Below are positions 1,230 to 48,924 of a DNA stretch of 64,000 bases, in pieces. The stretch's first letter is position 1, and every line of letters starts with the position of its first letter. The stretch comes from Rubrivivax sp. (lineage in GTDB: Bacteria; Pseudomonadota; Gammaproteobacteria; Burkholderiales; Burkholderiaceae_C), in NCBI GenBank assembly GCA_016789955.1, contig JAEUPB010000064.1, positions 1-64,000 on the forward strand. Reading direction: 5' to 3'. The notes under the pieces are model-generated. The model ran no database searches. It was not told where the DNA came from and saw only the letters and a program-made list of their open reading frames with translations. The position numbers and the translations under genes were made by a program.

Positions 1230-1316
1230 GGACAGGCTCCAACGGGCATCGTTGATGGGCCTGCGCGGGCGGCGACGGGAGGGCGGGATCCGCTCACCGA
1301 CGAGACCACTCGTGCA

Positions 1317-1385
1317 GGTGAGCGCGGTTGCAGGGGGATGCTCCGAGCCTGGCCTTCATGGCGAAGGTTGCAACGCTCCTCGGCA
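1317..1385 (-). promoter_or_regulatory. SAH riboswitch in the ahcY leader
   Basis: Read on the minus strand, the leader contains CCGAGGAGCGTTGC, then CCAGGCTCGG, then GCAACCGCGCTC, the conserved blocks of the S-adenosylhomocysteine riboswitch. The expected pairings are present: P1 CCGAG with CTCGG, an internal hairpin CCTTC/GAAGG, and the long-range pseudoknot GAGCG plus TTGCA with TGCAA plus CGCTC. This class is an ON switch known upstream of ahcY in beta- and gammaproteobacteria, which fits the gene 88 bases downstream. A TACACT hexamer at 1395-1400 (minus strand) could be the -10 box; I see no convincing -35. A CCCGCG-AA-CGCGGG palindrome lies just upstream at 1407-1420. Confidence 0.92.
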
Positions 1386-1514
1386 GCGGCGCGCAGTGTA
1401 GAACATCCCGCGAACGCGGGGGCGTGCGGGTTTCACGGCGGCGACATCCGACACTCGGGTCCTCGTCGCCACGTCGCCCTCCGGATGCCCGCGTCACGCT
1501 CCATCTCCGCCGCC

Positions 1515-36749: not shown

Positions 36750-36892
36750 CGGGCCGCCGACAGACGAGGGCCCGGAGCATCGCCCCACGCTGGGTGCGGT
36801 GCATCATCGCGTCTGGGAGGGGGCGAGTACCCCCGCCCGACAGCCGCAGGCGGGTCGTTTCCGCGATCGGCGATGAGCAGGGAGGAGCCTGG

Positions 36893-37534
36893 ATGAGCCG
36901 CATCTACCTCGTCGACGACCATCCGGTCGTGCGCGAGGGCCTGCGAGCGCTGGTCGAAGCGGCTGGCCATCTCGTGATCGGCGAGTCCGCCGAGCCCACC
37001 GGGGCGATCGGCGAGATCGTGCGCCTGCGCCCGGACGTGGTGCTGGTCGACCTGGGGCTCGACACCCGCTCGGGGTTCGAACTGCTGCGCGACCTGCGCC
37101 GCCGCGAACTGCCGGTGCGTGCGATCGTCGTCACGGCGTCGGCGCAGCCGCGCCACGTGGCCGAGGCGCTGCGCGAAGGGGCCTCGGGCTACGTGTTGAA
37201 GGGCTCGGCGCGTACCGAGCTGGTGCGGGCGGTGTCCGAGGTCTCCCAGGGCCGCCGCTACCTGGCCGCCGAGGTGGCCGACCTGGCCGTCCAAGGCCTG
37301 GCCGCGCCGGACGAGGAAGACCCGCTGGCGCAGCTCTCGCCCCGCGAGCGGCAGATCATCGCGCTGGTGGTCAAGGGCCACACCAGCCCGGCCATCGCGC
37401 AGCAGCTGCACCTGTCCCCGAAGACGGTGGACACCTATCGCAGCCGCCTGATGGCCAAGCTGGGCGTCACCGACATCACCGGGCTGGTGCGCCTGGCCGT
37501 GCGCACGGGGTTGATCGACCCCTGCGACGGCTGA
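36893..37534 (+). CDS. LuxR/NarL-family response regulator
   Basis: A 213-residue two-component regulator: receiver domain with IYLVDDHPVVREGLRALVE, phospho-Asp in VVLVDLGLD (near 52), Lys in YVLKGSA, and a C-terminal LuxR helix-turn-helix LSPRERQIIALVVKGHTSPAIAQQL then LSPKTVDTYRSRLMAKL. ATG at 36893 has GGAGGA 6-8 bases upstream. No kinase is adjacent; the nearest is the CHASE3 kinase 7 kb away. The 191-base gap before it carries two inverted repeats (36702-36749 and 36819-36834). Confidence 0.92.
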   Translation: MSRIYLVDDHPVVREGLRALVEAAGHLVIGESAEPTGAIGEIVRLRPDVVLVDLGLDTRSGFELLRDLRRRELPVRAIVVTASAQPRHVAEALREGASGYVLKGSARTELVRAVSEVSQGRRYLAAEVADLAVQGLAAPDEEDPLAQLSPRERQIIALVVKGHTSPAIAQQLHLSPKTVDTYRSRLMAKLGVTDITGLVRLAVRTGLIDPCDG

Positions 37535-37543
37535 AGACAAGAA

Positions 37544-37602
37544 TCCCCTACACGCGCCGTCAGGAGGCTCCGACAGCGCGCACGGCCCCTGCTGCCTAGA
37601 GT
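37544..37602 (+). promoter_or_regulatory. Activator-type promoter upstream of the AraC-family gene
   Basis: CCTACA at 37547-37552 lies exactly 50 bases upstream of the -10-like TAGAGT at 37597-37602. The same hexamer-to-minus-10 spacing recurs at five promoters between 42.6 and 46.4 kb. A further CCGACA is at 37570-37575. There is no recognisable -35, as expected of an activator-dependent promoter. The predicted start of transcription coincides with the ATG of a 38-codon reading frame at 37609. Confidence 0.5.
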
Positions 37603-37608
37603 GGCTGC

Positions 37609-37725
37609 ATGAACTGCAGCACCGTACGCTCCTCCGGGGCCCCCGGCGGCCTGGCGGATGCGCAGGCTGCGCAAAGCCGTCCCTGCGCGCCGGCCCCGAC
37701 GAAGCACGGGGCTCCGCGCCGATGA
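37609..37725 (+). CDS. Possible 38-residue leader peptide overlapping the AraC-family gene
   Basis: An ATG 6 bases after the TAGAGT -10 box opens a 38-codon frame (begins MNCSTVRSSG) that ends in TGA overlapping the ATG of the regulator gene (ATGA). The arrangement suggests leaderless translation coupled to the downstream gene. The peptide resembles nothing I know and the frame may be fortuitous. Confidence 0.35.
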   Translation: MNCSTVRSSGAPGGLADAQAAQSRPCAPAPTKHGAPRR

Positions 37726-38627
37726 TCCACGTCGGCTTGCTGCGCGGGCTGTGCGAACAGCTCGAGTCGCAGGGCATCGACGTCTCGGCGGCACTGGAGT
37801 GGGCGGATTGCGACTGGCACACGCTGTGTGCCGACCGCGACTGGATCTGCGAGCTGCCGCTGCACTGGATCGTGCTGGGTCTGCAGCGCCACGGCCTGAC
37901 CCCGGCCGCGCTGCGCCGAGCCTGGGCCGACCTGCCGATGCAGCATTTCGGCACGCTGGCCAGCTCGCTGGCCGCCGCGCCCCGCGGCCGCGACGCCCTG
38001 GCGACGTTGCACCAGCACGTCGGCGAGCGCTGGCCCACCGTCGACAGCCGCCTGGAGGTCGCCGAAGGCGGCCTGGTCTGGTCGCTGCACATGCAGGCGC
38101 CTGCGGGCGAGTTGCGGCGCTTCCTGCTCGAAGGCCTCACCGGCTGCTGCACCCGGCTTCTCGCGCATGCGCTGGGCACGGTGCCCGAACCGCGAGACAT
38201 CGGCCCGGGCAGCGTGGCCTGGCACATCGACGACGACCGACTCGATCGGGTACGCCCCAACGGCCCGGCCGCCGCCTTCGACGCCGCCTGGCCCGAGGAC
38301 GACCTGCCGCACGCCGCCGCGAGTCTGGCGGCACGCGTCGAGGAGCTGCTCGGCGAGACCGATCATGGCGGCGACATCGAGCGCATCGCGCACGCCCTGG
38401 GCATCGCGCCGCGCACGCTGTCGCGCCGGCTGGCCCGAGCCGGGCTGAGCTTCCAGACCTTGCTGGAGAACTGGCGCAAGCGCCACGGCAAGGAACTGCT
38501 CGATCGCGGCGACGTGCCGATGGCCGAAGTGGCCCGCCGCCTGGGCTATCGCAGCGTGTCCAACTTCAGCCGCAGCGCACGCCGCTGGGCGGGTCGCGGC
38601 ACAGGCAGGCCCGACACCGACGCCTGA
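37722..38627 (+). CDS. AraC-family transcriptional regulator
   Basis: A 301-residue regulator. The N-terminal two thirds correspond to the OruR/Arabinose_bd-type effector region (VGLLRGLCEQLESQGIDV at the start), and the C-terminal part has two helix-turn-helix units: IERIAHALGIAPRTLSRRLARAG and MAEVARRLGYRSVSNFSRSAR. It precedes, in the same direction, the PEP-mutase-family / Bug / TAXI-like / Bug cluster and is the obvious candidate to control it. The ATG at 37722 overlaps the stop of a short upstream frame. Confidence 0.85.
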   Translation: MIHVGLLRGLCEQLESQGIDVSAALEWADCDWHTLCADRDWICELPLHWIVLGLQRHGLTPAALRRAWADLPMQHFGTLASSLAAAPRGRDALATLHQHVGERWPTVDSRLEVAEGGLVWSLHMQAPAGELRRFLLEGLTGCCTRLLAHALGTVPEPRDIGPGSVAWHIDDDRLDRVRPNGPAAAFDAAWPEDDLPHAAASLAARVEELLGETDHGGDIERIAHALGIAPRTLSRRLARAGLSFQTLLENWRKRHGKELLDRGDVPMAEVARRLGYRSVSNFSRSARRWAGRGTGRPDTDA

Positions 38628-38705
38628 CACCGAGCCCACCCCCGGGCCGGTGGCACACTGGCCCCGCGACGCGGCGCCTCGACTCCGCCGCTGGTGGAGA
38701 CCCGC

Positions 38706-39608
38706 ATGCAGGATCAGACCCCGCAGCCGCTGCGAGCGCGGCTGCAGCAGCCCGGCCTCGTGGTGGCGCCGGGCGTGCACGACATGGTGTCGCTGCGCAT
38801 GGCCGATGCGCTGGGCTTCGAGGCGCTGTACATGACCGGCTTCGGCACGGTCGCTTCGCACCTGGGCCTGCCCGACGCGGGCCTGGCCACCTACACCGAC
38901 ATGGTCGGCCGCGTGCGCCAGATGGCCTCGATGGCACGCACGCCGCTGATCGCCGATGGCGATACCGGGTACGGCGGGCTGCTGAACATCGCCCACACGG
39001 TGCAGGGCTACGAGGCAGCCGGTGCCGCCGCCATCCAGCTCGAAGACCAGCAGATGCCCAAGAAGTGCGGCCACACGCCGGGCCGTCGCGTGGTGCCCGT
39101 GGCCGACATGGTGCGGCGCATCGAGGTGGCAGTGGCCTCGCGCCGGTCGCGCGACTTCCTCGTCATCGCCCGCACCGACGCGCGCACCACGCTCGGCCTC
39201 GACGAGGCGTTGCGCCGCGGCGAGGCCTGCGCCCGCGCCGGCGCCGACGTGCTGTTCATCGAGTCGCCCGAGAGCGTGGAGGAGATGCGCCGCATCGGCG
39301 AGGCCTTCGACCTGCCGCTGGTGGCCAACATGGTCGAAGGCGGCCGCACGCCGGTGGTGGACCGCGCCACGCTCGAACGGCTGGGCTACCGCATCGCCAT
39401 CCATCCGGTGACGGCGCTGCTGGCCGCCACGCACGCGATGCAGCGCGCCTACCGCACGTTGCGCACGCACGGCTCTTCGGTCGGGCTGGACGCCGAGCTG
39501 ATGCCCTTCGACGATCTCACCGCGCTGATGGGATTCCCCGACGTGCATGCCTTCGAACGACGCTGGGCCGAACCGGCGCCCGATCAACCAAGAGGAGACG
39601 AACGATGA
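38706..39608 (+). CDS. Isocitrate lyase/PEP mutase superfamily C-C lyase
   Basis: A 300-residue member of the ICL/PEPM superfamily (2-methylisocitrate lyase, dimethylmalate lyase, oxaloacetate decarboxylase group). The metal-binding strand is PLIADGDTGYGG, followed by QLEDQQMPKKCGH, whose KKCGH catalytic-loop motif is characteristic, and IARTDARTT. The ATG at 38706 has GGAG 7 bases upstream and is preferred to the GTG at 38694. Its stop overlaps the ATG of the next Bug receptor. Likely cleaves a branched hydroxydicarboxylate taken up by the neighbouring receptors (inference). Confidence 0.88.
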   Translation: MQDQTPQPLRARLQQPGLVVAPGVHDMVSLRMADALGFEALYMTGFGTVASHLGLPDAGLATYTDMVGRVRQMASMARTPLIADGDTGYGGLLNIAHTVQGYEAAGAAAIQLEDQQMPKKCGHTPGRRVVPVADMVRRIEVAVASRRSRDFLVIARTDARTTLGLDEALRRGEACARAGADVLFIESPESVEEMRRIGEAFDLPLVANMVEGGRTPVVDRATLERLGYRIAIHPVTALLAATHAMQRAYRTLRTHGSSVGLDAELMPFDDLTALMGFPDVHAFERRWAEPAPDQPRGDER

Positions 39609-40600
39609 CCCACCCCTCCCCACGCGGCCCCCGTCGCGCCGTGCTGGCGCTGCTGGCCGCCCTGCTGCTGCCGGCAGCCACACCCACCACCGCACAGGAC
39701 GCCTATCCGAGCCGCTCGGTCCGCCTGGTCGTGCCGTTCGTGCCCGGCGGCGTGACCGACACCAGCGCGCGCGTCGTCGCCGAGTACCTGGGCCGGCGGC
39801 TCGCGCAGCAGGTGATCGTGGACAACCGGCCGGGGGCCTCGGGCAACATCGGCACCGCGCAGGTGGCCGGCGCGGCGCCCGACGGCTACACGCTGCTGCT
39901 GGCCTTCGACGGCACGATGGTCATCAACCCTCACGTGTTCGCCAAGGTGCCGTTCGACACCATGCGCGATTTCGCGTCGGTGGGCCGCATCGGCACCGCC
40001 ACGCTCGTGCTGGCCGCCAACCCCGAGCTGCCCGCGCGCACGCTGGGCGAGGTGCTGGCGCTGTCGAAGAGCCGCCCCGGCGGCCTGTCCTACGGCACCT
40101 CTGGCATCGGGGGCACGCCGCACATCGCCGGCGAGCAGCTCGCCCAGCGCAGCGGGGCCAAGCTCGAGCACGTGCCGTACAAGGGCGGCGGGCAGGCCAT
40201 CGCCGACACCATCGGCGGCAGCATCCCGCTGGTCTACACCGCAGTGGCCGGCGCGCAGGGGCACGTGAAGTCGGGCAAGCTCCGCGCCATCGCGGTCTCC
40301 AGCGCCCGTCGCAACGGCGCGCTGCCCGACGTGCCCACCTTCATCGAGAGCGGCTTCCCCGACTTCGTGGCCGAGTCGTGGGTCGGCATCCTGGCACCGG
40401 CGAAGACGCCGCCGGCGATCACGGCGCGGCTCAACGCCGAGCTGAATACGGTGCTGAGCGATCCCGCGCTGCGCGAGCGGCTCGCCACGCTGGGCATCGA
40501 GGCCACGCCCGGCACGCCGGAGCAGTTCCGCGAGCAGATGCGCACCGACCTGGCCAACTACGGCCCGATCGTGAAGGCCGCCGGCATCAAGCTCGAATAG
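39605..40600 (+). CDS. Bug-family (TctC) periplasmic substrate-binding protein
   Basis: A 331-residue periplasmic receptor with signal peptide (AVLALLAALLLPAATPTTAQD). Family motifs are VRLVVPFVPGGVTDTSAR, VDNRPGASGNIGT, HVPYKGGGQAIADTIGG and FREQMRTDLANYGPIVKAAGIKLE-like C-terminus. It is coupled (ATGA) to the lyase upstream and has AGAGGAG as ribosome site. With the lyase it forms a uptake-plus-catabolism pair; the ligand is probably a carboxylate. Confidence 0.92.
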   Translation: MTHPSPRGPRRAVLALLAALLLPAATPTTAQDAYPSRSVRLVVPFVPGGVTDTSARVVAEYLGRRLAQQVIVDNRPGASGNIGTAQVAGAAPDGYTLLLAFDGTMVINPHVFAKVPFDTMRDFASVGRIGTATLVLAANPELPARTLGEVLALSKSRPGGLSYGTSGIGGTPHIAGEQLAQRSGAKLEHVPYKGGGQAIADTIGGSIPLVYTAVAGAQGHVKSGKLRAIAVSSARRNGALPDVPTFIESGFPDFVAESWVGILAPAKTPPAITARLNAELNTVLSDPALRERLATLGIEATPGTPEQFREQMRTDLANYGPIVKAAGIKLE

Positions 40601-40613
40601 GAAGGACCGCCCC

Positions 40614-41585
40614 ATGGCCCCCACCCCCGTGCTGCCCCGCGTGAACCTGACGATGGTCGGGGACTGGGGCACGGCGAACTTCCACACCGTGCTCGGCTGG
40701 ATCGCCGCGCACCTGCGCTGGCGCAGCGCACCGCGATCGCGCTTCGTGGTGCGCACCGGCAGCGCGTACCGGGAGAGCATCGAGCTGGTGTCGTGCGGCG
40801 AGGCCGACCTGGCGATCACAACGCCCTCGCACATCGGCGTGCGCTGGGCCGCCGAGGGGCGGCACTTCTACGCCGGGCTGCCGCGGCCGCAACTGCGCAC
40901 GCTGGGCCGGCTGCCGCAGGACGACCGGCTGGCCTTCGCCGTGCCGGCGTCGCTGGGCATCCGCTCGTTCGCCGAGCTGCGCGAGCGGCGCCCGGCGCTG
41001 CGCATCGCCACGCCGCTGCGCGACGAGAACAACCTGTGCAGCTGGGTCATCGACCGCGTGCTCGAAGCGCACGGCGTCGCCCCCGGCGACATCGAGCGCT
41101 GGGGCGGTACCTGGGTGGACCACGACAGCCCGCGCGTCTGCCTGCAGGCGGCCCTCGACGGCCGCGTCGACGCGGTGTTCAACGAGGCGATCATGCTCAC
41201 GCTGTGGCAGGACTGGGCGCGCAGCCGGCCGCTGGTGTTCCTGCCGATCGAGGCCGACGCCATGCGCGTGCTCGAAGGCGACTACGGCCTGAAGCCCGCG
41301 GTGGTGGAAGCCGGCCGCGTGCTGAACGCCGAGGCGGTGCCATGCCTGGACTGGTCGCACTGGGCGACGATCGTGCGCGACGACATGCCCGACGAGCTGG
41401 CCTACGCGATCACCGCGATCATGGTCGAGGAGCGCGCCGAACTCGAAGGGCGCTTCCGCCACATCCCGGCCCAGCACAGCCCGCTGAGCTATCCCATCGT
41501 GCCGCAGGCGATGTGCCGCGACATCGGGCTGCCCCTGCACCCCGGTGCGGCGCGCTACTACCGCGAACACGGCCACCTGGAGTGA
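40614..41585 (+). CDS. TAXI-like solute-binding protein without signal peptide
   Basis: A 323-residue periplasmic-binding-protein fold resembling TAXI/NMT1-type TRAP receptors: ISCGEADLAITTPSH-like ELVSCGEADLAITTPSH, a mid-domain hinge, and the C-terminal LPLHPGAARYYREHG, which is the TAXI family ending. Unlike its relatives it starts MAPTPVLPRVNLTMVGDWG with no hydrophobic signal segment, so as read it stays in the cytosol. No better upstream start is visible because the gene follows the Bug gene by 13 bases. It may be a ligand sensor or an enzyme that has kept the binding fold. Confidence 0.75.
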   Translation: MAPTPVLPRVNLTMVGDWGTANFHTVLGWIAAHLRWRSAPRSRFVVRTGSAYRESIELVSCGEADLAITTPSHIGVRWAAEGRHFYAGLPRPQLRTLGRLPQDDRLAFAVPASLGIRSFAELRERRPALRIATPLRDENNLCSWVIDRVLEAHGVAPGDIERWGGTWVDHDSPRVCLQAALDGRVDAVFNEAIMLTLWQDWARSRPLVFLPIEADAMRVLEGDYGLKPAVVEAGRVLNAEAVPCLDWSHWATIVRDDMPDELAYAITAIMVEERAELEGRFRHIPAQHSPLSYPIVPQAMCRDIGLPLHPGAARYYREHGHLE

Positions 41586-41590
41586 CCCTC

Positions 41591-42580
41591 ATGAGCGAGA
41601 ACCATCCGCCCGGTCCAGCCCGCCGCGCCGTGATCGGCGCCGGCCTGCTGGCCGCCGTCGGCCTGCCCGGCGCTGCGCACGCGCAGGCCTACCCGTCGAA
41701 GACGGTGTCCATCATCGTCCCCTTCGGCGGTGGCAACGCCTACGACCTGATGGTCCGTTATCTCGCCGAGCGGCTGCAGGAGGCGACCGGCCAGCCGTTC
41801 ATCGTCGAGGCGAAGCAGGGAGCGCTGGGCGGCATCGCGGCCTCGTTCGTGGCGCGCGCACCGGCTGACGGCCACACCATCCTCTTCGGCGCCAACTCGA
41901 CGCATGCCGCCAACGTGCACCTGTTCCGCAAGCTGGCCTACGACCCGGTGGCCGACTTCGCGCCGGTCACCACGCTGGCCACCATCCCGCAGGTGCTGGT
42001 GGTGTCGCCCACGCTGAAGGTGCGCGACCTGCGCGAGTTCATCGCGCTGGCGCGCAGCCGGCCGGGGCAGTTCAACTACGGCAGTTCCAGCGCCACGGGC
42101 CGCGTGGCCAGCGAGGCGTTCCGGCAGGCTGCCGGCATCGACGCCGTGCACGTGCCGTACAAGACCTCGGCGCAGGCTGTGACGGACCTCATCAGCGGAC
42201 AGCTGCACTTCCTCGTCACCGACGCCGCGCTGGGCATCGCGCAGTCGCAGGGCGGCCGCGTGCAGGCGCTGGGCATCACCTCGGCGCGGCGCGTGGCCAG
42301 CGCGCCCGATCTGCCGACCATCGCCGAGGCGGGGCTGCCCGGCTACGAGTTCAACGCGTGGCTGGCGTTGTTCCTCCCGACGCGCACGCCGCCGGAAGTC
42401 GTGCGGCGGCTGGCCGAGCTGACCAACGCCGTGGTGCGCAGCCCCGGCATGCTCGAGCACCTCGCACGGCTGCACGCCGATCCGTTCCCGGGCGACCCCG
42501 AGTCGCTGCGCCGGCTGGTCGAGCGCGACACCGGGCGCTGGGGGCAGCTCATCAAGGCGGCGGGCATCGAGCCGGAGTAG
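41591..42580 (+). CDS. Bug-family (TctC) periplasmic substrate-binding protein
   Basis: A 329-residue Bug receptor, the third in the window. Signal peptide RRAVIGAGLLAAVGLPGAAHAQA; family motifs VSIIVPFGGGNAYDLMVR, GALGGIAASFVARA, HVPYKTSAQAVTDLISGQ and IKAAGIEPE at the end. A GTG at 41582 that overlaps the previous stop (GTGA) is an alternative start. The NAYDLM segment replaces the usual GGGxD acidic contact, suggesting a different ligand from the first receptor of the cluster. Last gene of the cluster. Confidence 0.9.
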   Translation: MSENHPPGPARRAVIGAGLLAAVGLPGAAHAQAYPSKTVSIIVPFGGGNAYDLMVRYLAERLQEATGQPFIVEAKQGALGGIAASFVARAPADGHTILFGANSTHAANVHLFRKLAYDPVADFAPVTTLATIPQVLVVSPTLKVRDLREFIALARSRPGQFNYGSSSATGRVASEAFRQAAGIDAVHVPYKTSAQAVTDLISGQLHFLVTDAALGIAQSQGGRVQALGITSARRVASAPDLPTIAEAGLPGYEFNAWLALFLPTRTPPEVVRRLAELTNAVVRSPGMLEHLARLHADPFPGDPESLRRLVERDTGRWGQLIKAAGIEPE

Positions 42581-42595
42581 CGGCCTGCGGGCGGC

Positions 42596-42663
42596 TGACG
42601 GACACGTCCGACACGACGACCGGCTCGTGGCCGACCGACAGCGGCCGGGGTACGGCCTACGCT
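42596..42663 (+). promoter_or_regulatory. Activator box and promoter of the small secreted protein
   Basis: TGACGG-N6-CCGACA (42596-42613) is a nearly perfect 18-base dyad with an inner CGGAC-AC-GTCCG palindrome. Its CCGACA begins 50 bases before the -10-like TACGCT at 42658-42663, the same geometry as at the neighbouring BON and two-component genes. No -35 is apparent. Confidence 0.5.
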
Positions 42664-42699
42664 GAAGCCTCCACAGACTCCCCTCTGATCGGAGATGCC

Positions 42700-43137
42700 A
42701 TGAAGCGACTGCACCCCCTGACCCCGCTGGCCCCGCTGACTGCCGCCGTGGCGCTCTGCGCCGCGCTGGCCACCGCCGCCCACGCGCAGGACGACGAGCC
42801 GCTGCTGCCGCAGCAGTTCGGCGCGGCCACCGTCGTGAACGGCGGCGCCGGCCTCGACGAGGCGGCCGCCATCAAGCGCATGGCCGGCCACTACCCGCTG
42901 CGCATCGTCTTCAGCCAGCGCAATGGTGACTACGAGGTGGCCGACAGCCTGCAGGTGATGCGCGGCGGCGAACGCGTGGCCGAAGTCCCCGACGCCGGCC
43001 CCTGGCTGCTCGTGGACCTGCCGCCCGGCCGCTACACGCTGCGCGGCGACTTCGGCGGCCGCATGGAGCAGCGCGAGGTGACGATCGGCCGCGGCGGCCA
43101 GACCGTGCACTGGGTGCGCGGCGGCGCGCAGGGCTGA
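42700..43137 (+). CDS. Small secreted hypothetical protein
   Basis: A 145-residue protein with a Sec signal peptide (LTAAVALCAALATAAHAQ-D). The mature part ends in a beta-rich unit (WLLVDLPPGRYTLRGDF ... REVTIGRGG) like the carboxypeptidase-regulatory/transthyretin-like modules found in periplasmic proteins. GGAG lies 5-8 bases before the ATG. Its promoter carries the CCGACA box shared with the BON and two-component genes, so an envelope-stress role is plausible but unproven. Confidence 0.7.
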   Translation: MKRLHPLTPLAPLTAAVALCAALATAAHAQDDEPLLPQQFGAATVVNGGAGLDEAAAIKRMAGHYPLRIVFSQRNGDYEVADSLQVMRGGERVAEVPDAGPWLLVDLPPGRYTLRGDFGGRMEQREVTIGRGGQTVHWVRGGAQG

Positions 43138-43185
43138 CCGTTCCCCGCAACGGGCGGCGCGCGCCTCACGCGGCCCGCGCCGCCG

Positions 43186-43815
43186 CTACTGCATCAGCCC
43201 GTTCTTCAACGCGTAGTACGTGAGGTCGCTGTTGCTCGACAGCCTGAGCTTCTCCAGCACCCGCGTCCGATACGTGCTCACGGTCTTCACGCTGAGGAAC
43301 ATGCTCTGCGCGATGGCGCCGACCGTCTCGCCCTTGGCCAGGCGCAGGAACACCTGCAGTTCGCGCTCGGACAGCCTCTCGTGCGGCGCCTGCTGGCCGC
43401 CGTCGAGCGAATCGGCCAGCAGTTCGGCCACCGCCGCGCTGACGTAGCGCCGCCCGCGCGCCACCGTGCGGATGGCGGTGGCGATCTCGCTCGGGTCGCA
43501 CTCCTTGTTCAGGTAGCCGCTGGCGCCCTGCTTGAGCAGCGTCAGCGCGTAGTGCTCCTCCGGGAATCCGCTGAGGATGATGATGGGCAGCTCGGCGTAG
43601 CGCGCCTTGATCGCCTGCAGCGCATCGACACCGCCGTCGCCCGGCATCGACAGGTCCATCAGCAGCACGTCGACCTCGCCGCCCCGCGCCAGCTCCAGCG
43701 CCTCGCGGCCGTTGGCCGCCTCGCCGGTGACGCGCAGGTCCACCTCGTCGGAGATGAGCTGGCGCAGGCCGTTGCGCACGATGGCGTGGTCGTCGACGAT
43801 GCCGACTCGGATCAT
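43186..43815 (-). CDS. GacA/UvrY-like LuxR-family response regulator
   Basis: A 209-residue regulator of the NarL/FixJ class. Receiver: VGIVDDHAIVRNGLRQL, phospho-Asp in VLLMDLSMPGDGG (near 54), Lys-bearing GYLNKECDP in place of the usual GYLxK. DNA-binding region LSERELQVFLRLAKGETVGAIAQ then MFLSVKTVSTYRTRVLEKL, close in pattern to GacA/UvrY. CAGGAG lies 7 bases before the ATG at 43815. A TGTCGG-N6-CCTACA box, of the form bound by GacA, lies 74-91 bases upstream, 51 bases before a CACACT -10 candidate, suggesting autoregulation and shared control with the divergent BON gene. Confidence 0.92.
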   Translation of the reverse strand: MIRVGIVDDHAIVRNGLRQLISDEVDLRVTGEAANGREALELARGGEVDVLLMDLSMPGDGGVDALQAIKARYAELPIIILSGFPEEHYALTLLKQGASGYLNKECDPSEIATAIRTVARGRRYVSAAVAELLADSLDGGQQAPHERLSERELQVFLRLAKGETVGAIAQSMFLSVKTVSTYRTRVLEKLRLSSNSDLTYYALKNGLMQ

Positions 43816-43837
43816 GGTGTGCTCCTGGTGTGCACCG

Positions 43838-43993
43838 AGTGTGGCGCAACGCCGCGCCCGCCGTCTGACGGTGCCGGCGCCGCCTCGATGTCGGCGCCGT
43901 CCTACAGGGAGCAGGTCTGCCGCGTTCCTGCGCGCCGTCCTACAGCGGCATGCGGGCCAGGCCGACGCAGATCCGCCAACGCGCTGCCTAGAG
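43838..43993. promoter_or_regulatory. Divergent promoter region with GacA-box-like sites (regulator / BON gene)
   Basis: TGTCGG-N6-CCTACA lies at 43889-43906 and a second CCTACA at 43939-43944; both sit in an identical 14-mer, GCGCCGTCCTACAG. To the right, the second CCTACA is 49 bases upstream of TAGAGT (43988-43993), the -10 candidate of the BON gene. To the left, the minus-strand CCGACA (43894-43889) is 51 bases upstream of CACACT (43843-43838), the -10 candidate of the regulator gene. Neither side has a recognisable -35. Confidence 0.55.
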
Positions 43994-44078
43994 TGACCCG
44001 CAGGCCGGCACCCGCCGAGCCTGCCTGGTCCCGAACGATCGCCCGCCCGCCGGGCGTCCCAGCAGCAAGGAGTTCCTC

Positions 44079-44459
44079 ATGAACCGCACGTTGAGCCTTC
44101 CCATCGCCGCGGCCGCGCTGGCCGCGCTGGCCGCCGTCACCGGCTGCGACCGCCGTGACGAGCGCACCGCCGGGCAGAAGATCGACGCCGGCATCGCCCA
44201 GGTCGAACGTTCCGCCGAGCGCGCCGGCGCGGAGGTGAAGGGCACGGTCGCCGACGCGGCGATCACCGCGTCGGTGAACGCCCAGCTCGCGCGCGACAGC
44301 GAACTGAGCGCGCTGAAGATCGATGTCGACACCAGCGACGGGCGCGTCGCGCTCCGCGGCTCGGCGCCCAACCGCGATGCCCGCGACCGCGCCGCGCGGC
44401 TCGCGTCGGGTGTCGACGGCGTGAAGAGCGTGGACAACCAGCTCATCGTGAAGGGCTGA
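44079..44459 (+). CDS. BON-domain lipoprotein
   Basis: A 126-residue lipoprotein (lipobox LAAVTGC) with a short helical linker and one BON domain (DAAITASVNAQLARD, LSALKIDVDTSDGRVALRG, ending VDNQLIVKG), related to OsmY. BON domains bind phospholipid membranes and occur in envelope-stress proteins. It is a clear paralogue of the gene at 46824. AAGGAG lies 7-8 bases before the ATG. The upstream promoter carries two CCTACA boxes. Confidence 0.88.
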   Translation: MNRTLSLPIAAAALAALAAVTGCDRRDERTAGQKIDAGIAQVERSAERAGAEVKGTVADAAITASVNAQLARDSELSALKIDVDTSDGRVALRGSAPNRDARDRAARLASGVDGVKSVDNQLIVKG

Positions 44460-44480
44460 CGCCCAACACCGCCACCGCCG

Positions 44481-45833
44481 TCACGCCGCGGACAGCGGCA
44501 GCCGCGCCTCGATGCGCGTACCCTGGCCCGGCGCGGACGACACGCTCAGCACGCCGCCCACGGCCTCGACGCGGTAACGCATGCCCAGCAGGCCGTGGGT
44601 GCTGCCGCGCGTGCGCACCGGATCGAACCCACAGCCGTCGTCGACCACCGCCAGCCGCGCCACAGGGCCGTCGGCCACCATCGTCAGCTGCACCGTGCGT
44701 GCACGGGCGTACTTGGCGATGTTGGTGAACGCCTCCTGCACCAGCCGGTAGGCGGTGATCCGGCCGTCCTCGGGCAGCAGCAGCTCGGCCACCTCGGCCT
44801 GCAGCTCGATCTCGGCGCGGGCCGCGAACTCGCGCGCCAGGATCTGCAGCGCCGCCGCCAGCCCGAGGTTGGCCAGCGACGACGGGTGCAGGTCCTCGAT
44901 GATGCGGCGCTTCAGCGCGATGCCCTCGTCGATGGTGGCCACGAGGTGATCGAGCCGTGAGCGCAGCTCGGTGGAGGTACCGACGGTGCGGCGCATGCGT
45001 GCGGTGTCGAGCTTGGCCGCCGTGAGCAGCGCGCCCAGCTCGTCGTGCAGCTCGCGCGCCAGGCGCGCGCGCTCATCCTCGCGTGCGGTCTGCAGGTGCT
45101 GCGCCAGCTCGGTCAGCTCGGCGGTGCGGCGGATCACTTCGCCTTCGAGCTGGTCGCGCTCCTCGCGCGTGGCACGCGCCCGCTCGGCGCGCTCGTGCAT
45201 CAGCCGCGCGGTCTGGCGCACGAACAGCACGATCGCCAGCAGGCTCAGCGCCGCCATCGCGCCGACGCCCACGCGCCCCACCTGCAAGGTGTCGAACACG
45301 AGCTGCCGTTCCTGCGCGACGAGGCGGCTCTCGATGTCCAGCAGCCGCTCGCCCTCGTGGCGCGCGGCGTCCATCTTCTCGCGGCCGATGTCGGTGAGGA
45401 TCAGCTCGCGCGACGCCTCCAGCCGGCCTTCGCCGAAGAGCTTCAGCGTGGTCGCCAGCTCGCTGAGCTTCTCCTCGGACAGCGCAGCGATGCGGCGCAC
45501 GATCGGCCCGGCCTCGGGGTCATCGCCGTAGCGCGCCCGCAGGGTGCCGATCACGCTGCCGACCTCCTCCACGGCGCGGTCGTACGGGCGCAGGTACTCG
45601 GCCCGGCCGGTGAGCAGGTAACCGCGCTGCCCGGTCTCGGCGTCGGAGAGACCGCGCAGCAGCGTGTTGAGCTGCGCGCGGGCGACGGCGCGTTCGCCCA
45701 GGCTGTGCAGCGATTGCGTCGAACGGCGGTAGGCCAGCTCGCTGATCGCCACCAGCAGCACCGCCGCCACCAGCGCCGCGGACACCGCCCAGGCGCCGCG
45801 CCCGGCCAGACCGGAAGCCGACAGCCTGATCAC
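44481..45833 (-). CDS. CHASE3-domain sensor histidine kinase (HisKA_3)
   Basis: A 450-residue inner-membrane kinase. First membrane segment AWAVSAALVAAVLLVAISEL; periplasmic CHASE3 domain with DAETGQRGYLLTGRAEYL; second segment VGAMAALSLLAIVLFV; coiled coil; HisKA_3 dimerisation region with phospho-His in RELHDELGALLTAAKLD (near 259); HATPase with VQEAFTNIAKYARA, DDGCGFD and HGLLGMRYRVEAVGG. HisKA_3 kinases phosphorylate LuxR-type regulators, so the GacA-like regulator next door is the likely partner. GTG start at 45833 overlaps the stop of the receiver gene (GTGA). Confidence 0.92.
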   Translation of the reverse strand: MIRLSASGLAGRGAWAVSAALVAAVLLVAISELAYRRSTQSLHSLGERAVARAQLNTLLRGLSDAETGQRGYLLTGRAEYLRPYDRAVEEVGSVIGTLRARYGDDPEAGPIVRRIAALSEEKLSELATTLKLFGEGRLEASRELILTDIGREKMDAARHEGERLLDIESRLVAQERQLVFDTLQVGRVGVGAMAALSLLAIVLFVRQTARLMHERAERARATREERDQLEGEVIRRTAELTELAQHLQTAREDERARLARELHDELGALLTAAKLDTARMRRTVGTSTELRSRLDHLVATIDEGIALKRRIIEDLHPSSLANLGLAAALQILAREFAARAEIELQAEVAELLLPEDGRITAYRLVQEAFTNIAKYARARTVQLTMVADGPVARLAVVDDGCGFDPVRTRGSTHGLLGMRYRVEAVGGVLSVSSAPGQGTRIEARLPLSAA

Positions 45834-46240
45834 GACGGCACGGGACCGGAGTCGGAGCCGGCGTCGGCTTCGGCCATCCGTGCGCAGTAGGCGATCAGGT
45901 CGTCGAGCTCGGTGGACTTGTCGAACACGCGGTCGGCGCCGAGTGCCGCGCACTGGCGCCGCATCTCCGACGTGGCGTAGTTGGTCAGCACCACGCGCCG
46001 CGACCGATGCCCGGACTGCGCCAGGGCGCGCAGCACGCCCAGGCCGCTTCCGCTCTTCAGGAACACGTCGATGATGACCAGGTCACAGGGCTGCTCGCCG
46101 GCCCGCAGCCAGCCCAGCGCCGACGACTCGTCGGCCGCGTGCCCGACCACCTCCACGGGCGCCATCTCCTCGAGCGCCGAGATCAGGTTGTCGCGAATGA
46201 TGGGGCTGTCTTCGACGATGAAGGTGTTGACGACCGACAT
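45830..46240 (-). CDS. Receiver-only response regulator
   Basis: A 136-residue single receiver domain: FIVEDSPIIRDNLISAL, phospho-Asp in LVIIDVFLKSGSG (near 55), VVLTNYATSE with the Thr position, and the conserved Lys in VFDKSTELDD. No output domain. It is the first gene of the operon with the CHASE3 kinase and probably modulates or diverts its phosphate flow. ATG 46240. Its promoter seems to be GATACT at 46279-46284 (minus strand), exactly 50 bases after the CCTACA half of the palindrome at 46329-46346. Confidence 0.9.
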   Translation of the reverse strand: MSVVNTFIVEDSPIIRDNLISALEEMAPVEVVGHAADESSALGWLRAGEQPCDLVIIDVFLKSGSGLGVLRALAQSGHRSRRVVLTNYATSEMRRQCAALGADRVFDKSTELDDLIAYCARMAEADAGSDSGPVPS

Positions 46241-46278
46241 GGCAGGCGTTCGGGCGGATGGGGCTGCGTGCACCCCGC

Positions 46279-46430
46279 AGTATCGGCATCCAGCCCCGCG
46301 AGTGTCACCGCTCGGGGGCTCGATCGCCTGTAGGACTCTTCCTACAGGGGCGGCAGCGGGCCGATCGGACAGCTCCTACACCGCCATGCGGCTGCGGACG
46401 ATGGGGCAGGCAGCAGTCGATGCCTATCGT
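46279..46430. promoter_or_regulatory. Divergent promoter region with a perfect TGTAGG-N6-CCTACA palindrome
   Basis: CTGTAGGA-CTCT-TCCTACAG (46328-46347) is a perfect palindrome matching the GacA-box layout (TGTAAG-N6-CTTACA with two changes). Leftward, its minus-strand CCTACA begins 50 bases before GATACT, the -10 candidate of the receiver-kinase operon. Rightward, another CCTACA (46375-46380) begins 50 bases before TATCGT (46425-46430), the -10 candidate of the BON gene at 46477; the first copy is 84 bases from it. The block TCCTACA-2nt-GSCATGCGG is shared with the promoter at 43.94 kb. Confidence 0.6.
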
Positions 46431-46476: not shown

Positions 46477-46812
46477 ATGAACCACCTTCACATCGCCTTG
46501 CGCCCGATGCGCGTGCTCGCCATCGTCGCCGCGGCGGCCGCCGCCGTCAGCGGCATCACCGGCTGCGCGGTGGCCCGCGACCAGCAGACCGTCGGCTCGT
46601 ACATCGACGACGCCACGCTCACCACCCGCGTGAAGGCCAAGTTCGCCGAGGACCCGGTGGTCAGCGCGATGGCCATCAACGTGGAGACGCTGAAGGGCAC
46701 GGTGCAGCTCTCGGGCTTCGCGAAGTCGGGCGACGAGCGCTACACCGCGGAGCGGCTGGCCCGCAACACGTCGGGCGTGGTCGCCGTGCGCAACGACATC
46801 ATCGTGCGCTGA
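46477..46812 (+). CDS. BON-domain lipoprotein
   Basis: A 111-residue lipoprotein with lipobox SGITGC and a single BON domain (YIDDATLTTRVKAKFAEDP, MAINVETLKGTVQLSGF, ending VAVRNDIIVR). This subtype is widespread in Burkholderiales. AGGAGA is 7 bases before the ATG at 46477; an in-frame ATG at 46438, just after the -10 box, would add 13 residues in a leaderless message. It is followed after 11 bases by another BON gene. Confidence 0.88.
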   Translation: MNHLHIALRPMRVLAIVAAAAAAVSGITGCAVARDQQTVGSYIDDATLTTRVKAKFAEDPVVSAMAINVETLKGTVQLSGFAKSGDERYTAERLARNTSGVVAVRNDIIVR

Positions 46813-46823
46813 CGGAGCCGGCC

Positions 46824-47333
46824 ATGAACGACGACACCGTTCCGTCGGGCGTGAGGCCGCTGCACCCGCCGACGCCGCTGGGCAGCGATCTCCGCGCGCG
46901 CGACTTTCGCCCGCCGCGGCGACGCTGGCCGGGCTTCGTGGCCGCCGGCCTGCTCGGCGCAGGCCTGGCCGCGGCCGCGGTCTCGAGCTGGTACGACGCG
47001 CGGCCCATCGGCGAGCGCATCGACGCCGGGCTGGCCTCGGCCCGCGATGCCGCTCAATCAGCCGCCAGCAACACGGCGAACGCCGCCGGCGACGCCGCCG
47101 CATCGGCCGCCGCCGCGATGGGCGACGCGGCCATCACGGCCGCGGTGAAGACGGCACTGGCCACCGACCCGGCGTTGTCGGCGGTGAAGATCGACGTCAC
47201 CACCACCGACGGCGTCGTCCGGCTCGACGGCCCGGCCCCCGACAGCCGCTCGCGCGAGCGCGCCGAGATGCTGGCCAGCGCGCCGCAGGGCGTGATCCGC
47301 GTCGACAACCGGCTGGTCGTCCCGTCGAGCTGA
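46824..47333 (+). CDS. BON-domain membrane-anchored protein
   Basis: A 169-residue protein with a cytosolic Pro-rich N-terminus, one membrane anchor (WPGFVAAGLLGAGLAAAAVSSW), an Ala-rich helical linker and a C-terminal BON domain (GDAAITAAVKTALATDPALS, IDVTTTDGVVRLDG, ending VDNRLVVPSS). It is paralogous to the lipoprotein at 44079 but anchored by a transmembrane helix instead of lipid. GGAG lies 6-7 bases before the ATG. Co-transcribed with the BON gene upstream. Confidence 0.85.
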   Translation: MNDDTVPSGVRPLHPPTPLGSDLRARDFRPPRRRWPGFVAAGLLGAGLAAAAVSSWYDARPIGERIDAGLASARDAAQSAASNTANAAGDAAASAAAAMGDAAITAAVKTALATDPALSAVKIDVTTTDGVVRLDGPAPDSRSRERAEMLASAPQGVIRVDNRLVVPSS

Positions 47334-47382: not shown

Positions 47383-48924
47383 ATGCGCGACTTCGTCCTT
47401 GTGCTGGGCGACCAGCTCAACCGCGACAGCGCGGCGTTCGACGGCCACGATGCCACGCGCGACGGCGTCTGGATGGCCGAGGTGGCGGAGGAGTCGACCG
47501 TCGTGTGGTCGAGCCAGCCCCGCACGGCCCTGTTCCTCTCGGCGATGCGGCACCACGCGCAGGCGCTGCGCGACGAAGGCCTGGCGCTCGATTACACGCG
47601 GCTCGAGGACGGCGTATCGACGCTGGCCGATGCGCTGGCGGCCGCGCTGCGCCGCCACCGGCCCGAACGGCTGGTGCTGGCCGCCCCGGGCGACTGGCGC
47701 GTGCTGCAGGCCCTGCGCGCGGTGGCCGCGGCGCACGACGTACCGCTGGACCTGCGCGACGACCGCCACTTCTACGACACCGTACGCGGGTTCGCCGAGC
47801 ACGCGCGCGTCCGTCGGCAGCTGCGCCTGGAGACCTACTACCGCGAGATGCGGGTGCGGCACGGCGTGCTGATGGACGACGGCGCCCCGGCCGGGGGTCG
47901 CTGGAACTTCGACGCCGACAACCGCCAGGGCTTCCCCCGCGAGGGCCCGCCGCCGGTGCCACTGCCGGCCCGCTACGAGCCCGACGCCATCACGCGCGAG
48001 GTCATCGCGCTCGTGCGGCAACGCTACGCGGGCCATCCCGGCTCGCTCGACGACTTCGCCTGGCCGGTGACGCCGGCGCAGGCCCGCGACGCGCTCGACC
48101 GTTTCGTCGCCGAGCGACTGCCCGACTTCGGCCACTGGCAGGACGCGATGTGGCCCGGGCAGCCGTGGCTGTGGCACGCCCACCTCTCGGCGGCGCTGAA
48201 CCTCAAGCTGCTCGACCCGCGCGATGCGGTGCAGGCGGCCGAGGCGGCGTATCGCGCCGGGCGCGCGCCGCTGGCAGCGGTGGAGGGCTTCATCCGCCAG
48301 ATCCTCGGCTGGCGCGAATACGTGCGCGGCATCTACTGGACGCAGATGCCGGGCTACACCAGCCGCAACGAACTGGGCGCCACCGCGGCGCTGCCGGCGT
48401 GGTACTGGACCGGCGAGACCGACATGGCCTGCCTGCACGACGCCATCGGGCAGACGCTGCGGCTGGGCTACGCCCACCACATCCAGCGGCTGATGGTGAC
48501 AGGCCTGTTCCCGCTGCTGCTGGGCGTGGACCCCGATGCCGTGCACCGGTGGTACGGCGCGGTGTACGTCGACGCGGTCGACTGGGTGGAGCGGCCGAAC
48601 ACGCTGGGCATGAGCCAGCACGCCGACGGCGGGCTGATGGGCAGCAAGCCCTACATCGCCAGCGGCCAGTACATCGACCGCATGAGCGGCTACTGCCGCG
48701 GCTGCCGCTACCGGCCCGACCGACGTACCGGCGACGACGCCTGCCCGTACACCACGCTGTACTGGGACTTCCTGATGCGCCACGAGGCCCGCTACAAGGC
48801 CCACCCGAGGTTGGCGCAGCAGGTGCGCAACCTCGGCCGCATCGCACCGGCCGAGCGCGAGGCCATCGCCGCACAGGCGCAGCGCATCCGCATCGCCTGC
48901 GCGTCGGACGGCGCGCAGGCGTAG
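47383..48924 (+). CDS. FeS-containing bacterial (6-4) photolyase / cryptochrome (PhrB type)
   Basis: A 513-residue protein of the FeS-BCP branch of the photolyase family, whose member PhrB of Agrobacterium repairs (6-4) photoproducts. N-terminal domain FVLVLGDQLNRDS; C-terminal FAD domain with WREYVRGIYW, WVERPNTLGMSQHADGG and SKPYIASGQYI. The four cysteines expected for the [4Fe-4S] cluster are present at residues 350 (ACLHD), 438 and 441 (YCRGC) and 454 (ACPY), the same numbering I recall for PhrB. The ATG at 47383 follows GATACT (47371-47376) by 6 bases. Confidence 0.93.
   Translation: MRDFVLVLGDQLNRDSAAFDGHDATRDGVWMAEVAEESTVVWSSQPRTALFLSAMRHHAQALRDEGLALDYTRLEDGVSTLADALAAALRRHRPERLVLAAPGDWRVLQALRAVAAAHDVPLDLRDDRHFYDTVRGFAEHARVRRQLRLETYYREMRVRHGVLMDDGAPAGGRWNFDADNRQGFPREGPPPVPLPARYEPDAITREVIALVRQRYAGHPGSLDDFAWPVTPAQARDALDRFVAERLPDFGHWQDAMWPGQPWLWHAHLSAALNLKLLDPRDAVQAAEAAYRAGRAPLAAVEGFIRQILGWREYVRGIYWTQMPGYTSRNELGATAALPAWYWTGETDMACLHDAIGQTLRLGYAHHIQRLMVTGLFPLLLGVDPDAVHRWYGAVYVDAVDWVERPNTLGMSQHADGGLMGSKPYIASGQYIDRMSGYCRGCRYRPDRRTGDDACPYTTLYWDFLMRHEARYKAHPRLAQQVRNLGRIAPAEREAIAAQAQRIRIACASDGAQA

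What the first reader, a model, noticed from the sequence alone, without database searches (positions are those of the whole stretch)
37544..46430. A predicted GacA-type regulon: CCKACA hexamers 49-51 bp upstream of six -10 boxes
Seen directly: CCTACA or CCGACA begins 50, 50, 49, 50, 50 and 51 bases before -10-like hexamers TAGAGT (37597), TACGCT (42658), TAGAGT (43988), TATCGT (46425), GATACT (46284, minus) and CACACT (43843, minus). Several sites are 18-bp dyads: TGTAGG-N6-CCTACA (46329-46346, perfect), TGTCGG-N6-CCTACA (43889-43906), TGACGG-N6-CCGACA (42596-42613). None of the promoters has a -35. Known: the GacA/UvrY box is TGTAAG-N6-CTTACA, and a GacA/UvrY-like regulator is encoded at 43186-43815. 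Inference: that regulator activates the BON genes, a secreted protein, the CHASE3 kinase operon, itself and perhaps the AraC-type gene.
Basis: partly seen in the sequence, partly recalled or inferred. Interest (0 to 1): 0.85.

Follow-up and report, generated by a model that had tools for sequence, protein, structure and literature searches.

The report
GacA-like envelope-stress regulon in Burkholderiales
A bacterial switch protein related to the regulator GacA appears to turn on a set of cell-envelope genes through DNA boxes placed at a fixed distance from each gene's start signal, and the same layout recurs in many related bacteria.

Summary
The exact dyad is not enriched in this genome alone (5 sites, 5 for the reversed control), but it is across 60 same-genus genomes (233 v 93). 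In 80 Burkholderiales loci, 70 of 268 oriented dyads have a -10-like hexamer at exactly offset 50, mean 5.2 per offset. Matches track the regulator: 27 of 29 genomes with an orthologue, 5 of 31 without. Targets are mostly envelope-type genes and the two-component system itself. Best reading: tandem dimers of the 43186-43815 regulator at about -65 and -42 replace the -35. E. coli csrB and csrC and 17 of 17 rsmZ loci also have a second half-site 22-23 bp from the UvrY/GacA box, but far upstream. The protein misses the curated GacA cut-off, and its neighbour kinase is of another type. Binding is untested.

The parts
43186..43815 (-). LuxR/NarL-type response regulator (RR43), GacA/UvrY-like; predicted activator
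   Evidence: Pfam Response_reg + GerE; best NCBIfam model UvrY/SirA/GacA, 185.7 bits, cut-off 280; 40% identical to E. coli UvrY
44481..45833 (-). CHASE3-HisKA_3-HATPase sensor kinase, likely partner (GTG start overlaps the stop of 45830-46240)
   Evidence: homologue in 11 of 15 orthologous loci
45830..46240 (-). receiver-only response regulator, first gene of the kinase operon (operon is inference)
   Evidence: homologue in 13 of 15 orthologous loci
46329..46346 (-). perfect dyad TGTAGG-N6-CCTACA before the receiver-kinase operon
   Evidence: model R1 match 46279-46346, E 9.7e-6 (this site was in the model's training set)
46279..46284 (-). -10-like GATACT, 50 from CCTACA (an alternative GACACT lies at 28)
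46306..46311 (-). second half-site position (+23), GCGGTG, poor (2 of 6)
46363..46380 (+). imperfect dyad GATCGG-N6-CCTACA before BON gene 46477-46812
   Evidence: R1 match E 4.7e-5 (not in the training set)
46398..46403 (+). second half-site position (+23), ACGATG (3 of 6)
46425..46430 (+). -10-like TATCGT, 50 from CCTACA
46477..46812 (+). BON-domain protein, predicted target
   Evidence: Pfam BON
46824..47333 (+). second BON protein, perhaps on the same transcript
   Evidence: Pfam BON; operon is inference
43889..43906 (-). dyad TGTAGG-N6-CCGACA before RR43 (autoregulation)
   Evidence: R1 match E 0.006 (not in the training set)
43866..43871 (-). second half-site CCGTCA (5 of 6) at +23
43838..43843 (-). 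-10-like CACACT, 51 from CCGACA
43939..43944 (+). CCTACA half-site (left half 2 of 6) before BON gene 44079-44459
   Evidence: R1 match E 0.0012 (not in the training set)
43962..43967 (+). second half-site CCGACG (5 of 6) at +23
43989..43994 (+). -10-like TAGAGT, 50 from CCTACA (reader: 43988)
44079..44459 (+). BON-domain protein, predicted target
   Evidence: Pfam BON
42596..42613 (+). dyad TGACGG-N6-CCGACA before the secreted-looking protein 42700-43137
   Evidence: best R1 match in the own genome, E 1.2e-6 (in the training set)
42631..42636 (+). second half-site CCGACC (5 of 6) at +23
42658..42663 (+). -10-like TACGCT, 50 from CCGACA
42700..43137 (+). protein of unknown family with a signal-peptide-like start (judged by eye), predicted target
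   Evidence: no Pfam family
37547..37552 (+). CCTACA half-site before AraC-type gene 37722-38627 (left half 2 of 6); weak candidate
   Evidence: not among R1 matches at E<=10
37570..37575 (+). second half-site CCGACA (6 of 6) at +23
37597..37602 (+). -10-like TAGAGT, 50 from CCTACA

Best explanation
The boxes are operators of one regulon. The LuxR/NarL-type response regulator at 43186-43815, once phosphorylated (probably by the CHASE3 kinase at 44481-45833), binds TGTMGG-N6-CCKACA as a dimer centred about 65 bp before the transcription start. It helps a second dimer onto a weaker site exactly 23 bp downstream, centred about 42 bp before the start, in the -35 zone. That dimer recruits the housekeeping polymerase to a -10 box that has no -35. 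The regulon covers the regulator, its receiver/kinase operon and envelope-type genes (BON/OsmY-like, glycine-zipper/OmpA, EipA, DUF4398, DUF1328). Shown by comparison: the box, its spacing to the -10, the +23 half-site, and co-occurrence with the regulator. Inferred: binding, dimer geometry, which kinase, start sites, activation rather than repression, and the envelope-stress function.
For: Offset-50 peak: 17 of 58, 70 of 268, 8 of 68 in loci picked by dyad alone. +23 half-site: 44 of 77 non-redundant promoters picked on dyad and -10 only, mean 4.7 at the 21 other offsets from 18 to 39; logo of 80 promoters. Co-occurrence: R1 matches at E<=1e-3 in 27 of 29 same-genus genomes with an orthologue of at least 60% identity (one a partial hit), and in 5 of 31 without; on contigs other than the regulator's, 23 of 29 v 5 of 31 (counted by hand from the list, tested). 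Five of the eight best own-genome matches lie in 42.6-46.4 kb; two of the five were training sequences, three were not. Downstream reading frames: 21 of 74 with receiver domains, 15 of 74 BON, then glycine zippers, OmpA, EipA, DUF1328, DUF4398. Precedent for the geometry: BvgA dimers every 22 bp, the last abutting the -35 (PMC7250471, passages).
Against: In this genome alone the exact dyad is no commoner than the reversed control (5 v 5). G020 has strong sites (best E 2.6e-6) without a close orthologue, and G048, G055, G066 and G072 have weaker ones. At order level 7 of 11 other genomes with an orthologue give no match at E<=0.001 under strict filters. R1 was built from loci chosen for the regulator, so the full co-occurrence count is partly circular; the off-contig count reduces this. 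The left half of the second site is not enriched (3 of 77 at +23). Two of six window promoters have a poor second site. Genome tests ignore phylogeny. No binding or start-site data.
Confidence: 0.75

Rival explanations
1. The box is bound by a different regulator, such as another LuxR-type paralogue or the one at 36890-37534, and the 43186-43815 protein is only a neighbour.
For: The 36890-37534 protein and UvrY share the KTV-x-x-YR recognition helix; five genomes have sites without a close orthologue.
Against: Co-occurrence 27 of 29 v 5 of 31; a site in the regulator's own promoter; the 36890-37534 query found only 29-38% matches in the 15 neighbourhoods, mostly the RR43 orthologue itself.
Confidence: 0.15
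2. One dimer at the dyad activates from the class I position, and the +23 element is a -35-like or other polymerase element, not a second regulator site.
For: The element (C-C/T-G-A-T/C) can resemble TTGACA (10 of 77 reach 4 of 6 at position 35); its left half is not enriched; two of six window promoters have a poor copy.
Against: A -35 at position 35 would need a 21-bp spacer; the register is exactly 23 bp with the same half-site preference; E. coli csrB/csrC and 17 of 17 rsmZ loci also have a half-site 22-23 bp from the box.
Confidence: 0.2
3. The dyad is a repressor operator, not an activator site.
For: Comparison cannot show the sign of regulation.
Against: It lies upstream of the core promoter at a fixed distance, and a -35 is rare in these promoters, as expected of activator-dependent promoters.
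Confidence: 0.05
4. Chance pattern in GC-rich intergenic DNA.
For: Exact dyad 5 v 5 in the own genome.
Against: Offset-50 peaks in three sets; +23 peak 44 of 77 v a mean of 4.7.
Confidence: 0.01

Closest known systems
GacA/UvrY/SirA response regulators and the GacA box TGTAAG-N6-CTTACA
   Same: 18-bp dyad with N6 and TGT...ACA ends; UvrY/SirA/GacA is the best NCBIfam model; 40% identity to E. coli UvrY; a second half-site 22-23 bp from the box in csrB, csrC and 17 of 17 rsmZ loci examined.
   Different: Inner bases CC[T/G] instead of CTT; box start about 74 bp before the inferred start instead of 178-192; sites found here precede protein-coding genes, not CsrA-binding RNAs; CHASE3-HisKA_3 kinase; below the curated cut-off.
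BvgA-activated promoters of Bordetella (geometry as described in PMC7250471, passages)
   Same: NarL-type regulator (recalled); strong upstream dyad, then a weaker site one dimer length downstream next to the -35 region.
   Different: Spacing 23 not 22; different half-site; two sites instead of the three or six described there; different regulon.
NarL/UhpA-type two-component systems with HisKA_3 kinases
   Same: Domain make-up of kinase and regulator.
   Different: CHASE3 sensor, and a receiver-only gene just before the kinase; box compared from recall only.

Membership tests
GacA/UvrY/SirA | Passes the curated NCBIfam NF007018 cut-off (280 bits) | tested here: not met
   185.7 bits, best of 92 models
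GacA/UvrY/SirA | Binding site TGTAAG-N6-CTTACA | tested here: not met
   Same length and symmetry, but TGTMGG-N6-CCKACA; binding itself untested
GacA/UvrY/SirA | Activates CsrA-binding small RNAs | tested here: inconclusive
   No RF00166 match in the own genome; of all Rfam families only an SAH riboswitch rings in the window; other sRNA families were not sought genome-wide
GacA/UvrY/SirA | Partner is a hybrid GacS/BarA kinase with Hpt (recalled) | tested here: not met
   Adjacent kinase is CHASE3-HisKA_3-HATPase; the partnership itself is inferred from position
GacA/UvrY/SirA | Box about 180 bp before the start | tested here: not met
   csrB -191, 17 rsmZ loci -178 to -192 (box starts); here about -74 if the start is 7 bp after the -10 (inferred)
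NarL/FixJ-type (LuxR-type HTH) response regulators | Receiver plus GerE domain | tested here: met
BvgA-like tandem-dimer promoters | Second site one dimer length downstream, beside the -35 | tested here: met
   Right half-site at +23 in 44 of 77; sequence evidence only
BvgA-like tandem-dimer promoters | Head-to-head dimers shown at both sites | not testable with these tools
   Needs footprinting; the left half of the second site is not enriched

The most novel reading that the evidence does not exclude
GacA, UvrY and this Burkholderiales regulator share one unrecognised binding rule: a strong 18-bp dyad plus a weaker half-site two helical turns (22-23 bp) away, so they bind as phased tandem dimers like BvgA. 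In gammaproteobacteria the array sits far upstream of small-RNA genes; in Burkholderiales the same array sits against the core promoter and directly runs an envelope-stress regulon with no small-RNA step.
Probability: 0.5. Interest if true: 0.75.

Novelty: new variant of a known kind. Interest (0 to 1): 0.62.

Why it matters
It would give a widespread two-component system (relatives in Rubrivivax, Roseateles, Hydrogenophaga, Variovorax, Acidovorax and others; the best 80 of 593 candidates kept), for which my paper searches listed no study, a binding site, a promoter geometry and a regulon that can be tested directly. It also suggests that the GacA box is only part of a longer, phased operator, which can be tested at csrB and rsmZ.

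Tried and rejected
Exact-dyad enrichment in the own genome: not seen. RF00166 in the own genome: none. GacA box within 130 bp of the rsmZ 5' end: not there, it lies at about -185. A -10 at offset 27 as the main spacing: a minor peak (5 of 58; 22 of 268); it overlaps the T39-A40 end of the second half-site, so it is probably a by-product (inference). Chance, and the 36890-37534 regulator as the binder: rejected as above. A count that needs care: the half-site also scores 44 of 77 at offset 48 and 16 at offset 46, but those positions overlap the -10 by which the promoters were picked. Literature: nine searches (each shows at most 8-20 papers, of up to 1,472 that hold the terms) listed no paper on this regulon or on a +23 half-site rule for GacA. 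PMC4682653 (one section read) notes, without a spacing rule, a TGTAGGAGA 5 bp downstream of the csrB box and a TGTAAG 16 bp upstream of the csrC box. PMC8523701 (passages), PMC2375449 (passages), PMC9045368 (passages) and PMC7911923 (passages) did not bear on the spacing. The library lacks most subscription journals; Humair et al. 2010 is recalled, not seen.
Full report
Observation. All six hexamer pairs are in the sequence. TAGAGT of the BON44 promoter starts at 43989, so its spacing is 50; the six spacings are 50 five times and 51 once. The three dyads are as described. A normal -35 is rare in the related promoters: TTGACA at four or more letters is seen 3, 5 and 1 times at start positions 38, 39 and 40 in 77 promoters.

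Is it more than chance? In this genome alone (79.6% complete) the exact dyad TGTMGG-N6-CCKACA is not enriched: 5 sites, and 5 for the reversed pattern. Relatives decide the matter. Across 60 same-genus genomes, this one included, there are 233 against 93. In 15 loci around orthologues of the 43186-43815 regulator (13 genomes) plus the window, 17 of 58 oriented dyads (at most one mismatch) have a -10-like hexamer (A2, T6, at least three of six TATAAT letters) at offset 50, mean 0.89 over offsets 15-94. In 80 named loci found through the regulator (the best 80 of 593 candidates; some are the same genomes as the first set) there are 134 dyads in 68 of 80 loci, against 24 in 20 loci for the reversed pattern, and 70 of 268 oriented dyads have the hexamer at offset 50, mean 5.2; the next peaks are 27 (22), 73 (16) and 49 (15). 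In 33 loci picked by the dyad alone, 4 of them from this genome, 8 of 68, mean 0.85; one of the 8 is the window's own.

A second site. The logo of 80 promoters (each under 70% identical to any other over 130 bp) is nearly flat outside the dyad and the -10, except for a block at position 27 and positions 34-40 from the dyad start: G27 in 57, C35 in 66, C or T36 in 70, G37 in 58, A38 in 45, T or C39 in 71. This resembles CCKACA again, 23 bp downstream. Among 77 promoters (each under 65% identical to any other) chosen only by dyad and -10, 44 have at least four of six matches at +23, against a mean of 4.7 at the 21 other offsets from 18 to 39. The left half of such a second site is not enriched, 3 of 77. 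In the window four of six promoters have five or six of six matches there (AraC 6; 42596, 43927 and 43906- 5 each); 46363+ has 3 and 46346- has 2.

Regulon. A sequence-only model R1 of 52 promoters gives 94 matches at E<=10 in the own genome. The best eight include five from 42.6-46.4 kb of the window; two of these (42596 and 46346-) were training sequences, three were not. The other three precede a DUF4398 lipoprotein (C68), a beta/gamma-crystallin glycine-zipper protein (C84) and an EipA family protein, Envelope integrity protein A (C28). A C95 match (E 0.02) precedes a secreted-looking protein of no known family. The AraC site is not among the 94. In relatives and the own genome I compiled 108 downstream reading frames (PWM score at least 24, start within 200 nt of the -10) and passed 74 of the 108, chosen by hand to avoid near copies, to Pfam: 21 with receiver domains, 15 BON, 5 Rick_17kDa glycine zippers, and OmpA, ferritin-like, DUF1328 and Crp-type 2 each, EipA, DUF3096, DUF4398, MscS-type and others once; 25 of 40 families are shown in the answer. 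Reading frames came from a simple codon score, so some assignments may be wrong.

Who binds? The regulator has Response_reg and GerE domains. Its best NCBIfam model is UvrY/SirA/GacA at 185.7 bits, under the cut-off of 280. It is 40% identical to E. coli UvrY with a similar recognition helix. R1 matches at E<=1e-3 occur in 27 of 29 same-genus genomes with an orthologue of at least 60% identity (G062 is a partial hit; the two misses are G006 and G062) and in 5 of 31 without; four of the 31 have a 48-50% homologue (Fisher 7e-10, phylogeny ignored). Counting only matches on contigs other than the regulator's, by hand from the list, it is 23 of 29 v 5 of 31. The five without a close orthologue are G020 (E 2.6e-6), G048, G055, G066 and G072. 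At order level 4 of 11 other genomes with an orthologue (E<=1e-68) and 5 of 138 without have a match at E<=0.001; in G108, G117 and G089 the match lies within about 1.3 kb of the regulator gene.

Mechanism. If transcription starts 7 bp after the -10 (inferred), the dyad is centred near -65 and the second site near -42, the usual activator positions (recalled). BvgA binds as head-to-head dimers every 22 bp with the last next to the -35 (PMC7250471, passages). I therefore favour tandem dimers with the downstream one replacing the -35. Kinase pairing is inferred from position: CHASE3 kinase homologues lie in 11 of 15 orthologous neighbourhoods and the receiver-only gene in 13 of 15.

Comparison with GacA. 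In E. coli K-12, csrB has the UvrY dyad starting at -191 and TGTAGG at -168 (23 bp), and csrC has TGTAAG at -190 and its dyad at -168 (22 bp); PMC4682653 notes these extra sequences without a spacing rule (section read). In these the GacA box (11 or 12 of 12 letters) starts 178-192 before the RNA match, and a TGTAAG-like half-site follows at +22 (5 loci) or +23 (12 loci), at least five of six letters in 15 of 17 and four in the other two. These loci are related to each other, so they are not 17 independent events, and only offsets 21-24 were scored. I found no statement of this rule in the searches listed under Tried and rejected.

Verdict. The protein is GacA-like but not a GacA by the curated test, its box and box position differ, and the promoter geometry is best described as a BvgA-like tandem array. 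Binding, phosphorylation and starts remain to be measured.

Noticed in passing
L159, L160 and L260-L275, L286: UvrY/GacA boxes of csrB and 17 rsmZ loci are followed, and that of csrC preceded, by a half-site 22-23 bp away.
   Followed up: partly
window 1313-1388 (-): S-adenosylhomocysteine riboswitch (RF01057, 60.5 bits).
   Followed up: no
window 39608-42580: Genes that look like tripartite tricarboxylate (Bug/TctC-type) binding proteins, next to an isocitrate-lyase/PEP-mutase-like gene at 38694-39608 (judged from sequence, no call).
   Followed up: no
window 47383-48924 (+): Photolyase/cryptochrome-like protein directly after the BON genes (judged from sequence, no call).
   Followed up: no
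genome handle G020 (L237, L238, L247): Three strong promoter matches although no orthologue of the regulator at E<=1e-60 was found; the MAG has 7% contamination.
   Followed up: no
loci L052 (G055), L053 (G006) and G015:C335: The dyad TGTAGGGCTGGCCCTACA recurs in three genomes. In G015 it lies 17 bp, and in G006 about 1.1 kb, from a different LuxR-type regulator (45-49% identical), and in L052 and L053 it also has a -10-like hexamer at 50: possibly a sister regulon.
   Followed up: no
L045 1048-2367 and 4227-5549: Two different CHASE3 kinase genes in one orthologous locus.
   Followed up: no
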